Assembly: GCA_022508505.1 (NCBI GenBank)
Contig: JAFLVC010000005.1
Coordinates: forward strand, 1 to 64,000
Direction: 5' to 3'
Origin: Clostridiales bacterium
GTDB taxonomy: Bacteria > Bacillota > Clostridia > Christensenellales > Pumilibacteraceae
Length of the DNA stretch: 64,000 nucleotides
The translations under genes were made by a program, and so were the position numbers. The notes beneath the pieces are model-generated. The model was not told where the DNA came from. It did not search any database and saw only the letters and a program-made list of their open reading frames with translations. Shown here one piece after another: positions 27,148 to 44,899 of the stretch (its first letter is position 1; each line of letters opens with the position of its first letter).

Positions 27148-29085
27148 ATGAACGATATCGAAAAAATGCGAGAGCTTGTCGACAAGCTCAACGACCTCGC
27201 GTACAGATATTACGTGCTCGACGAGCCCATTGTCTCCGACAAGGAATACGACGCATTATACGACGAGCTCGTCGCTTTGGAAAAGACTATGGGCGTAGTT
27301 CTTTCCGATTCGCCCACGAAACGGGTGGGCGGCGAGCCGCTTAAAGAGTTCGAAAGCCACACGCACATTCGGCGTCTTTACAGTCTCGAAAAGTGCAACA
27401 GCTTCGACGAGCTTCGCGCTTGGTTTGATAAATTGAAATCGTCGCTCGGAGCGGCGCCTCTATGCACACTTGAATACAAGCTCGACGGGCTGACGCTGTG
27501 CTTGACGTACCGCGACGGCAAGCTTGAATGCGGCGCGACGCGCGGAAACGGCGAAACGGGCGAAAACGTCACCGAGCAGGTAAAGACAATTCGCTCGGTA
27601 CCGCTATCCATACAGTACGCCGGAGTGGTCGAAGTTCAGGGCGAGGGCATAATGCGGTACAGCGCGCTCAAAAAGTACAACGAGACGGCGGCCGTGCCGC
27701 TTAAAAATCCGAGAAACGGCGTTGCGGGCGCAATACGCAACCTCGACGTAAAGGAAACGGCAAAGCGCAACCTCGATGTCATTTTCTACAACGTCAACTA
27801 CATGGACGGCGACCGTACCATGTCTCAGCACGAGCAGATCGAGTTTTTAAAATCGAACAGGTTCAAGACAGATATTTGCTTCAAGTCGGACGATATCGAA
27901 AAAATAATAGAGCGAATTGAGGCTGTCGATAGAGGCGCGCTCGACTTTGCAATCGACGGAATGGTGGTCAAAGTAGATGACCCTTCCGTCCGCGAAAAAT
28001 TAGGCTACACCGACAAATTCCCCAAGTGGGCTATTGCGTATAAGTTTGAAGCGGAGGAGACTACCACCGTACTCGAGGACGTTATTTGGCAGGTCGGGCG
28101 AACCGGCAAGCTCACGCCGCTCGCAATTTTGGAGCCCGTTGAGCTGTGCGGCGCGACGGTTCGGCGCGCTACGCTCAACAACTACGGTGACATCTGCCGA
28201 AAAGAGGTCACGATCGGCTCGCGCGTGTTCATCAGAAGAAGCAACGACGTCATTCCCGAGATTCTCGGAGTGGCGCAAAAGAGCGACGCGGCGCGGCAAA
28301 TAGAAAAGCCGACGGTCTGTCCGGGCTGCGGAAGCGAGCTCATTGAGGACGGAGCTAACCTGTTCTGCCCGAATTTTTACGGCTGCCGTCCGCAGATTGT
28401 CGCGCGTCTTGTGCAGTTTTGCGCCAAAGAGTGCATGGACATCGAGGGCATAAGTATAAAGACTGCCGAACAGCTTTACGACGTGCTCGGCGTTCGCTCG
28501 GCGGCGGAGCTTTTCGACCTAACCGAAGAACAGCTTAAAAAGCTCGACGGTTTTAAGGACAAAAAGATAAGCAATTTTATTGCCGCCGTAAAAAAATCCA
28601 AGTCGTGCGACCTTCCGCACTTTATAAATGCGCTTTGCATAGACAACGTCGGAAGAAAGACGGCAAAAGACCTTGCCGAGCATTTCGGCTCTATTGACGC
28701 GCTTCGAGCGGCGAGCGCAGAAGAGCTTGTCGGCATTCCCGACATAGGCGAGATTGTCGCTCATTCCATAGTCGACTACTTCGCGCGCCACGGCGAGGTT
28801 GTAGACAGATATAAAGAGCTCGGCATAGATCCCAAATTCGAAAAGAAATCGGACGGCAAGCTGAACGGACTGAAGTTCGTTCTGACGGGAACGCTTCCCA
28901 CATTGAAGCGCGACGAGGCGCGCGCCATGATAGAAGCTGCGGGCGGCGTTGTTCAAGGCTCCGTTTCAAAGCTGACCGACGTTGTTGTTGCGGGCGAGGC
29001 TGCGGGCTCAAAGCTCGACAAGGCGACGGCGCTCGGTATCAAAATTATAGACGAAACCGAGCTCATGAGCATGCTAAAAGCTTGA
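27148..29085 (+). CDS. ligA: NAD+-dependent DNA ligase
   Basis: LEYKLDGLTL, Cys4 zinc finger, HhH, BRCT. Confidence 0.97.
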   Translation: MNDIEKMRELVDKLNDLAYRYYVLDEPIVSDKEYDALYDELVALEKTMGVVLSDSPTKRVGGEPLKEFESHTHIRRLYSLEKCNSFDELRAWFDKLKSSLGAAPLCTLEYKLDGLTLCLTYRDGKLECGATRGNGETGENVTEQVKTIRSVPLSIQYAGVVEVQGEGIMRYSALKKYNETAAVPLKNPRNGVAGAIRNLDVKETAKRNLDVIFYNVNYMDGDRTMSQHEQIEFLKSNRFKTDICFKSDDIEKIIERIEAVDRGALDFAIDGMVVKVDDPSVREKLGYTDKFPKWAIAYKFEAEETTTVLEDVIWQVGRTGKLTPLAILEPVELCGATVRRATLNNYGDICRKEVTIGSRVFIRRSNDVIPEILGVAQKSDAARQIEKPTVCPGCGSELIEDGANLFCPNFYGCRPQIVARLVQFCAKECMDIEGISIKTAEQLYDVLGVRSAAELFDLTEEQLKKLDGFKDKKISNFIAAVKKSKSCDLPHFINALCIDNVGRKTAKDLAEHFGSIDALRAASAEELVGIPDIGEIVAHSIVDYFARHGEVVDRYKELGIDPKFEKKSDGKLNGLKFVLTGTLPTLKRDEARAMIEAAGGVVQGSVSKLTDVVVAGEAAGSKLDKATALGIKIIDETELMSMLKA

Positions 29086-29110
29086 TATTGTTCTTTCGAT
29101 GTGATATAAT
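29082..29110 (+). promoter_or_regulatory. Promoter at ligA 3' end, reading into the structured element
   Basis: TTGATA-N17-TATAAT, extended -10 TGaTATAAT. Confidence 0.75.
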
Positions 29111-29113
29111 ATA

Positions 29114-29175
29114 CGCAGTCTCGATTGCTGTCGCAATCTTGGCGCAAATGCGCCTCGCGCATCCGCGCGACTGCG
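29114..29175. other. Four-way-junction (cloverleaf-like) inverted-repeat element; possible structured RNA
   Basis: Closing stem CGCAGTC/GACTGCG (7 bp) enclosing GATTGC-tgtc-GCAATC, GGCGCA-aa-TGCGCC and CGCG-catc-CGCG. Confidence 0.6.
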
Positions 29176-29253
29176 GTATTGAATCACAACGCAAAAATGC
29201 TATTGCAAGCAAGCATATTTTGCTTGTGATATAATTATTATGTCGAGGTGTTT

Positions 29254-30132
29254 ATGAAGAGTATGACCGGATACGGAAAGGGCGTCGCTACCCGCGATAA
29301 GCGAACCGTAACCGTAGAATTAAAGTCGGTGAACAACAGGTTTACCGAAATCGGGTGCAAGCTACCCAAGTCGTTGATGTATCTCGACGACGTGGTGACT
29401 AAGTGTATCAAGGCTCGCGTTTCGCGCGGAAGCGTGGACGTCTATTTGACGTACGAAAACCTTTCCGATTCATCTAAAAAGGTAAATATCGACAGCGCAC
29501 TCGCGGCGGAGTACGTGGCCGCAGCAAAGCGCATTCGCGCCGAGTATTGCTTGGCAGACGATTTTGCCGTCACTGCGCTACTTAGAACCCCCGAGGTCGT
29601 AACGGTTACAGTGCCTGACGACGATCGCGACACCGTCGCTGAGCTTGCCAAAGAAGCGACGGATACAGCGCTAGACAATCTCGAAAGAATGCGGCTTGCC
29701 GAGGGCAAGAGTATTTACGACGATCTCTATAAGCTCGTGGGCAATCTCGACGCGTACTTAAAGCTCGCCATATCTCGCGCACCGTTGGTTGTCTCGGAGT
29801 TCAAGAAAAACGTCACGGCACGGGTAAAAGAGCTGTTGGACGGCCACGAGGTCGACGAAGCAAAGCTTCTCAACGAAGTTGCGTTCTTTGCCGATAAGGC
29901 CGACATAAACGAGGAAATTTCAAGGCTCTCTTCGCACATCGCGCAGTTTAGAGCTATTTGCGACGACGGCAGCTCGCCGCAGGGCAGAAGGCTCGATTTT
30001 CTCTCGCAGGAGATGGTGCGGGAGGTGAACACAATGGGCAGTAAGTCAAACGACTTGACGCTCACGGGTTACGTAGTCGCAATGAAAAACGAGGTCGAGA
30101 AAATCAAGGAGCAGATAAGGAACGTCGAATAA
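29254..30132 (+). CDS. YicC family protein (endoribonuclease YicC-like)
   Basis: MKSMTGYGKGVA...LKSVNNRF, C-terminal EMVREVNTMGSKSND. Confidence 0.93.
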   Translation: MKSMTGYGKGVATRDKRTVTVELKSVNNRFTEIGCKLPKSLMYLDDVVTKCIKARVSRGSVDVYLTYENLSDSSKKVNIDSALAAEYVAAAKRIRAEYCLADDFAVTALLRTPEVVTVTVPDDDRDTVAELAKEATDTALDNLERMRLAEGKSIYDDLYKLVGNLDAYLKLAISRAPLVVSEFKKNVTARVKELLDGHEVDEAKLLNEVAFFADKADINEEISRLSSHIAQFRAICDDGSSPQGRRLDFLSQEMVREVNTMGSKSNDLTLTGYVVAMKNEVEKIKEQIRNVE

Positions 30133-44788: not shown

Positions 44789-44817
44789 TTGATTTTGCGG
44801 TGTGATTGTGATACAAT
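44789..44817 (+). promoter_or_regulatory. Promoter A upstream of dCMP deaminase
   Basis: TTGATT-N17-TACAAT, extended -10. Confidence 0.6.
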
Positions 44818-44885
44818 GTAACAATCTGAAATATTGCAGAGTGATTGACGTTGATAAAAGCAATGCAATCTGAGAATCAATCTGC

Positions 44886-44899
44886 GATTGTGATATAAT
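44886..44899 (+). promoter_or_regulatory. Promoter B upstream of dCMP deaminase
   Basis: Extended -10 TTGTGATATAAT, weak -35. Confidence 0.5.

What the first reader, a model, noticed from the sequence alone, without database searches (positions are those of the whole stretch)
29114..29175. Perfect four-way-junction fold between ligA and yicC
Seen: a 7-bp closing stem CGCAGTC/GACTGCG encloses three hairpins in series: GATTGC-tgtc-GCAATC, GGCGCA-aa-TGCGCC and CGCG-catc-CGCG. Nearly every base is paired, in a 62-nt GC-rich island within AT-rich flanks. A strong extended -10 promoter (29082-29110) points straight into it. It has no T-arm, so it is not a tRNA, and no U-run, so it is not a plain terminator. 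Candidates: small structured RNA, 5'-leader element of yicC, or a mobile palindromic/cruciform repeat.
Basis: partly seen in the sequence, partly recalled or inferred. Interest (0 to 1): 0.62.

Follow-up and report, generated by a model that had tools for sequence, protein, structure and literature searches.

The report
Promoter-targeting hairpin mobile element
The fold is the body of a 125-base non-coding mobile DNA element that jumped precisely into the promoter of the yicC gene, and related elements across gut Clostridia repeatedly choose the same promoter spot, which makes a new case of unusually exact, apparently harmless target choice by small bacterial repeats.

Summary
The four-way-junction fold at 29114-29175 is real and not chance, but it is only part of the feature. 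It is the left half of a 125-bp non-coding repeat (29111-29235). The rest is a hairpin with an invariant TTGCAAGCAA tip and a second TGTGATATAAT.

The genome has nine such copies, all exactly at the -10 box of promoters of unrelated genes. In 11 relatives the ligA-yicC promoter is conserved and lacks the element. A twelfth has an unrelated element inserted at the same -10.

The terminal hairpin recurs at about 140 sites in related Clostridia (control motif: 2). Its stem covaries strongly. It ends several element families with different sequences that share the same layout of three hairpins in a closing stem plus a bulged hairpin. These families target the -10 box sense, the -10 box antisense, or tRNA T-loops.

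Best reading: a non-autonomous mobile element family that inserts just downstream of -10 boxes, where the promoter survives. A single-stranded-hairpin mechanism like IS200/IS605 or REP elements fits best, but no mobilising enzyme was found, so the mechanism is inferred. No Rfam family and no paper found describes it. The leader or sRNA idea is not supported; the mobile-palindrome idea is.

The parts
29082..29110 (+). native yicC promoter: -35 TTGATA (29082-29087), 17-bp spacer, extended -10 TGTGATATAAT (TATAAT 29105-29110); the insertion target
   Evidence: 11 of 12 consensus matches; same promoter, overlapping the ligA stop codon, in 12 relatives and two Pumilibacter
29111..29235 (+). the whole inserted element (125 bp, family D)
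   Evidence: 9 copies in the genome; absent at the orthologous site in relatives
29114..29175 (+). four-way junction: closing stem 29114-29120/29169-29175 with hairpins 29123-29138, 29141-29154, 29157-29168
   Evidence: z -4.9; layout kept in other families of unrelated sequence
29178..29187 (+). guide-like segment ATTGAATCAC, which can pair with the right end GTGATATAAT
   Evidence: folds; first base covaries with the last target base (A-T 21, G-C 14)
29191..29223 (+). conserved right-end hairpin: stem GCAAAAATGC/GCATATTTTGC, 2-nt bulge, invariant tip TTGCAAGCAA
   Evidence: about 150 sites in 35 of 74 family genomes, 2 in the reversed-pattern control; stem covariation 608/712 paired cells against 439 +- 11 shuffled
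29225..29235 (+). second TGTGATATAAT (TATAAT 29230-29235) at the gene-side end of the element; new extended -10 in front of yicC
   Evidence: present at the right end of family D copies; direct repeat of 29100-29110
29254..30132 (+). yicC, the gene behind the invaded promoter
   Evidence: PF03755 and PF08340
44812..44899 (+). a second, unrelated -10-box element (family F) in the same window: TACAAT 44812-44817 ... TATAAT 44894-44899

Best explanation
The feature is a non-autonomous mobile DNA element, one of a superfamily in gut Clostridia. SHOWN: it is a dispersed 125-bp non-coding repeat inserted immediately 3' of the -10 box of the yicC promoter. Copies sit at the same point of other promoters. 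Its right end is a bulged hairpin with an invariant tip shared by families that differ in sequence and target but keep the same layout. INFERRED: the hairpins are read as single-stranded DNA by an enzyme supplied in trans, as in IS200/IS605 and REP elements. A short segment 5' of the hairpin pairs with the target motif and sets the target. Landing between -10 and +1 leaves the promoter working and adds a structured leader, and the element's own TGNTATAAT end gives the gene a second -10.
For: Nine copies in the genome at 79-100% identity, all oriented like the downstream gene and next to unrelated genes: nrdR, flavodoxin, sdaA, yitT, a macB-like ABC gene, a putative pantothenate-kinase operon, a surface-repeat protein and yicC (the ABC, kinase and surface-protein names are from the sequence by eye, not from a profile). 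Empty orthologous sites: ligA-yicC in 11 relatives and nrdR in G002, G004, G014, G018. A -35 of at least 4/6 lies 16-18 bp before the left -10 in 21/33 family D sites (17% of control TATAAT-like sites) and at least 5/6 in 12/33 (3.3%); for antisense family E 29/37 and 18/37. Hairpin covariation. 0 of 121 chance matches in viral contigs have a 4-bp stem, against 121 of 139 here. Right hexamers of several copies differ from the left TATAAT (TATACT, TAAAAT, TAGAAT), so the right copy looks element-borne rather than a target duplication. Same four-way-junction-plus-hairpin layout in families A, B, D and E.
Against: No enzyme was found. The genome has no Y1 transposase, the Y1 genes of relatives have other ends, none of the 28 Y1 loci checked carries the hairpin tip, and no ORF recurs inside or beside copies. 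The guide-target covariation rests on two large families and is partly shared ancestry. A short target duplication cannot be excluded for every copy. The genomes with copies appear to be draft assemblies, mostly MAGs. Recent movement was not observed.
Confidence: 0.7

Rival explanations
1. A MITE moved by an ordinary DDE transposase with a 6-bp target duplication, TATAAT.
For: TATAAT flanks both sides of many copies; in the near-identical L302-L304 family the base before TATAAT agrees on both sides.
Against: No terminal inverted repeats; right hexamers often differ from the left in a way shared by subfamilies, e.g. GGTAAAAT; in G000 the base before TATAAT usually disagrees between the two sides.
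Confidence: 0.15
2. A cis-regulatory leader or small RNA: the promoter drives a structured RNA that controls the downstream gene or acts in trans.
For: A strong promoter points into it; the fold is very stable; it would be the 5' leader of yicC mRNA if transcription starts at the left -10.
Against: Unrelated downstream genes, absent at orthologous promoters, sister families inverted relative to the promoter, no Rfam match at gathering score.
Confidence: 0.08
3. An element whose own structured RNA guides a recombinase to the target, as bridge RNAs do for IS110.
For: Conserved branched layout with changing sequence; segment that matches the target changes between families; the left promoter would transcribe it.
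Against: No recombinase tied to it; in family E the promoter transcribes the opposite strand; pairing segment is short and imperfect.
Confidence: 0.07

Closest known systems
IS200/IS605-family elements (IS608, ISDra2) and their non-autonomous derivatives
   Same: Subterminal bulged hairpin, guide-like segment 5' of it, insertion 3' of a short motif kept in the left flank, right end ending in a similar motif (features as given in PMC5934647 and PMC6006769).
   Different: No transposase gene or matching IS ends found; target is the whole -10 box; long branched body; the pairing segment is longer and farther from the hairpin foot.
REP elements with RAYT transposases
   Same: Short intergenic hairpins with a bulge, many families, no coding content.
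   Different: No GTAG tag, low copy number, 125 bp with a four-way junction, exact promoter target, no RAYT in this genome.
Correia elements (CREE) of Neisseria
   Same: Small palindromic MITE-like repeats that often border -10-like sequence and create promoters at their ends (PMC9330008, PMC2649163).
   Different: Correia elements have inverted repeats and mostly a TA duplication; here no terminal inverted repeats and the target is the complete -10 box of an existing promoter.
CGTC-tagged palindromic repeats
   Same: Dispersed hairpins without a known transposase (PMC3733652); family A has GTCGTCGTC before the hairpin.
   Different: Those hairpins have 8-9 bp stems and 4-5 nt loops and were reported from five phyla that do not include Firmicutes; family D has no CGTC tag.
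Clostridiales-1 RNA (RF01699)
   Same: Closing stem with hairpins and a GCUUGCA tip on the minus strand; weak full-length alignment, 14.7 bits.
   Different: Far below its gathering score of 48; sister families do not match it any better.

Membership tests
IS200/IS605-type non-autonomous element | subterminal imperfect hairpin at the right end | tested here: met
   bulged hairpin, invariant tip, strong stem covariation; recognition by an enzyme not testable
IS200/IS605-type non-autonomous element | matching hairpin at the left end | tested here: inconclusive
   first body hairpin of family D copies ends in TTGC-NNN-GCAA in many but not all
IS200/IS605-type non-autonomous element | insertion 3' of a fixed short motif, no target duplication | tested here: inconclusive
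   always just 3' of TATAAT in family D; right motif often differs, but no strain-level filled/empty pair
IS200/IS605-type non-autonomous element | guide sequence pairing with the cleavage site | tested here: inconclusive
   guide and target bases covary A-T 21, G-C 14, mainly two families
IS200/IS605-type non-autonomous element | Y1 transposase with the same ends in the genome or its relatives | tested here: not met
   none in own genome; other ends in relatives
REP/RAYT | GTAG or GTGG at the 5' foot of the hairpin | tested here: not met
   sequence of 29178-29192 and 139 sites
REP/RAYT | RAYT gene flanked by the repeat | tested here: not met
   RAYT-like genes of hairpin-bearing genomes lack the repeat within about 1.5 kb
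DDE-type MITE / Correia element | terminal inverted repeats | tested here: not met
   ends ATACGCAG and ...GTGATATAAT are not inverted repeats
DDE-type MITE / Correia element | target-site duplication | tested here: inconclusive
   TATAAT on both sides of many copies, unequal in many others
Any Rfam RNA family | score above the gathering threshold | tested here: not met
   only tRNAs in the window; best weak match 21.7 against 100
IS110 bridge-RNA element | IS110 recombinase with adjacent non-coding RNA | not tested

The most novel reading that the evidence does not exclude
A superfamily of tiny modular mobile elements in which one shared hairpin is the handle for a common enzyme, while an exchangeable segment re-programs the target between the -10 box in either orientation and the tRNA T-loop. 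This would be natural, guide-based retargeting of transposition to functional sites where insertion is tolerated.
Probability: 0.3. Interest if true: 0.85.

Novelty: new variant of a known kind. Interest (0 to 1): 0.6.

Why it matters
Most small bacterial repeats have a vague target, such as AT-rich sites, a TA or a tetranucleotide. Here at least two unrelated families land at the same point of working promoters, just behind the -10 box, in many species. That spot lets an element persist without breaking the gene, adds a structured leader, and supplies a second -10. If the pairing segment does set the target, the elements would be natural examples of DNA-guided retargeting. It also warns that conserved-looking 'structured RNAs' behind promoters in Clostridia may be mobile DNA.

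Tried and rejected
Rfam at gathering and permissive thresholds, window and sister loci: no family. Clostridiales-1 looked tempting (full-length alignment) but scores 14.7 against 48. IS200-type Y1 transposases: absent here, other ends in relatives. RAYT-like genes: real but not flanked by the hairpin. Recurrent ORF beside copies, found by all-against-all BLASTP: only the repeats themselves and unrelated genes. Viral contigs: 121 hits to the 16-mer, none with a 4-bp stem, so chance. Plasmid and phage collections: no match. Self-splicing intron idea, raised by the tRNA-Leu of G034 interrupted in its T-loop: only one full tRNA case among 139 sites, in an incomplete MAG; not pursued. Literature search by tip sequence and by terms found no earlier description. 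Two paper searches failed on syntax.

Full report
Observation. The sequence described is there. The 62-nt stretch folds as a closing stem with three hairpins, -33.6 kcal/mol, z -4.9. The promoter before it is TTGATA-17-TATAAT with a TG extension. The minus strand folds as well or better, in another shape.

The unit is longer. BLASTN of the genome finds the same sequence in eight further places at 79-91% identity. Aligned copies agree from directly behind a left TATAAT to a right TGTGATATAAT, 125 bp, window 29111-29235. Behind the junction come ATTGAATCAC (29178-29187) and a hairpin, GCAAAAATGC-TA-TTGCAAGCAA-GCATATTTTGC (29191-29223), best drawn with a 2-nt bulge and a TTG/CAA tip. Two copies lie head to tail on contig 9 and share one TGTGATATAAT.

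It is an insertion in a native promoter. In 11 relatives the ligA-yicC region has the same TTGAAA-17-TAYAAT promoter overlapping the ligA stop codon, with no element. L085 reads GCTTGAAATAACGCTTGCTTTGTGGTACAATATTATAAGAGGTGTTTATG. A twelfth, L091 (contig of the same length as G018:C1, so taken as genome G018), has an 81-bp insertion of another sequence at exactly the same -10. The right end of that sequence is itself a dispersed repeat, family F, with a copy in this window at 44812-44899. The nrdR promoter repeats the story: the D element in this genome, none in G002, G004, G014 or G018, and the F element in G003 and G008.

All nine copies are oriented with the gene behind them, and those genes are unrelated. 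Over 33 family D sites in several Clostridia, a -35 of at least 4/6 lies 16-18 bp before the left -10 in 21, against 17% of TATAAT-like control sites; at least 5/6 in 12 against 3.3%. A few rows of that automatic list are tandem or mis-registered sites, which lowers the score rather than raising it. So the target is a working promoter, not any TATAAT.

A superfamily. The pattern GCNNTTGCAAGCAAGC occurs about 150 times in 35 of 74 family genomes, 2 times in the reversed control, and in 37 of 392 genomes of the class with no control match. Of 139 sites read, 121 have a stem of at least 4 bp; of 121 chance matches in viral contigs none has. Stem pairs in 89 distinct hairpins: 608 of 712 cells paired, against 439 +- 11 when 3' arms are shuffled. 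The families are as follows. D: behind the -10 box, in its sense. E: at the -10 box in antisense; a -35 of at least 4/6 on the hairpin side in 29 of 37, on the other side 10 of 38. B: in the T-loop of tRNA genes or their 3' fragments. A and C: targets not settled. Their bodies have no sequence in common, yet members of A, B, D and E fold as three hairpins in a closing stem followed by the bulged hairpin (two of fourteen folded examples, L308 and L311, and some E examples do not show every part in the minimum-energy fold of the whole stretch). Within D, covariation is modest but present: four pairs with changes on both sides, against 1.4 in shuffles.

Mechanism. No ORF lies in the elements or recurs beside them, so they are moved in trans, if they still move. 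Hairpin ends, a motif kept in the left flank and a pairing segment 5' of the hairpin are features of IS200/IS605 and REP systems (PMC5934647, PMC6006769). In D the right hexamer is often not a copy of the left, and is shared within subfamilies, e.g. TAAAAT, so it seems to belong to the element. The first base of the pairing segment matches the last base of the target (A-T 21, G-C 14, A-C 1, G-T 1, others 10), mostly a contrast between families D and E. Against it: this genome has no Y1 transposase, and Y1 and RAYT-like genes elsewhere lack these ends. The mechanism is therefore an inference. A DDE-type MITE and an RNA-guided element remain as rivals.

Consequences for yicC, inferred. The native promoter stays complete because the insertion lies between -10 and +1. 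Transcripts starting there would carry the whole structure as a leader. The right TGTGATATAAT is a second extended -10, 18 bp before the yicC start codon.

Known or new. No Rfam family matches. Correia elements of Neisseria are the nearest precedent for -10-like targets (PMC9330008), and REP or CGTC repeats for dispersed hairpins (PMC3733652). They differ in ends, size and target exactness. No paper found describes this family, but the library holds only open-licence papers. I file it as a new variant of a known kind: non-autonomous palindromic mobile elements.

Noticed in passing
window 44812-44899 (+); L091; L464-L482: A second, unrelated dispersed element (family F, about 70-85 bp, right end GAATCAATCTGTGATTGTGATATAAT) that also sits at -10 boxes. 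It occurs at the yicC promoter of G018 and the nrdR promoters of G003 and G008, often in tandem arrays in which some of the downstream leader looks duplicated too.
   Followed up: partly
L061 (G034:C25:22225-22380): The only tRNA-Leu(UAA) gene found in this 94%-complete MAG is interrupted in its T-loop by about 68 nt that carry the same conserved hairpin. Leaving the insert out gives a sequence ARAGORN calls a complete tRNA. Either a second copy is missing from the assembly or the insert is removed from the transcript.
   Followed up: partly
L032, L036: Sister elements inserted in the T-loop of a second, partial 3' copy of tRNA-Arg and tRNA-Ile genes, some 100-300 bp behind the intact tRNA.
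   Followed up: partly
L050, L054, L219, L272 and others (G013, G031): Family A, about 40 sites, with 22 pattern matches in G013 alone: same layout, ends AATAAATTAGG and CTCCTCGAATA. Several lie just before terminator-like hairpins. Target rule not worked out.
   Followed up: no
L028, L047, L049, L199, L258: Family C, same terminal hairpin but a different longer body, several members with GGGAGTGTAGAACCACCTACATGACC; nature unknown.
   Followed up: no
L262:336-408 (-); L058:5085-5156 (-): A fluoride riboswitch and a Gut-1 RNA lie close to copies of sister elements in other genomes.
   Followed up: no
L327, L328, L329, L330: Small RAYT-like Y1 proteins (about 166-172 aa) in Clostridia genomes that also hold the hairpin, but not flanked by it.
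   Followed up: partly
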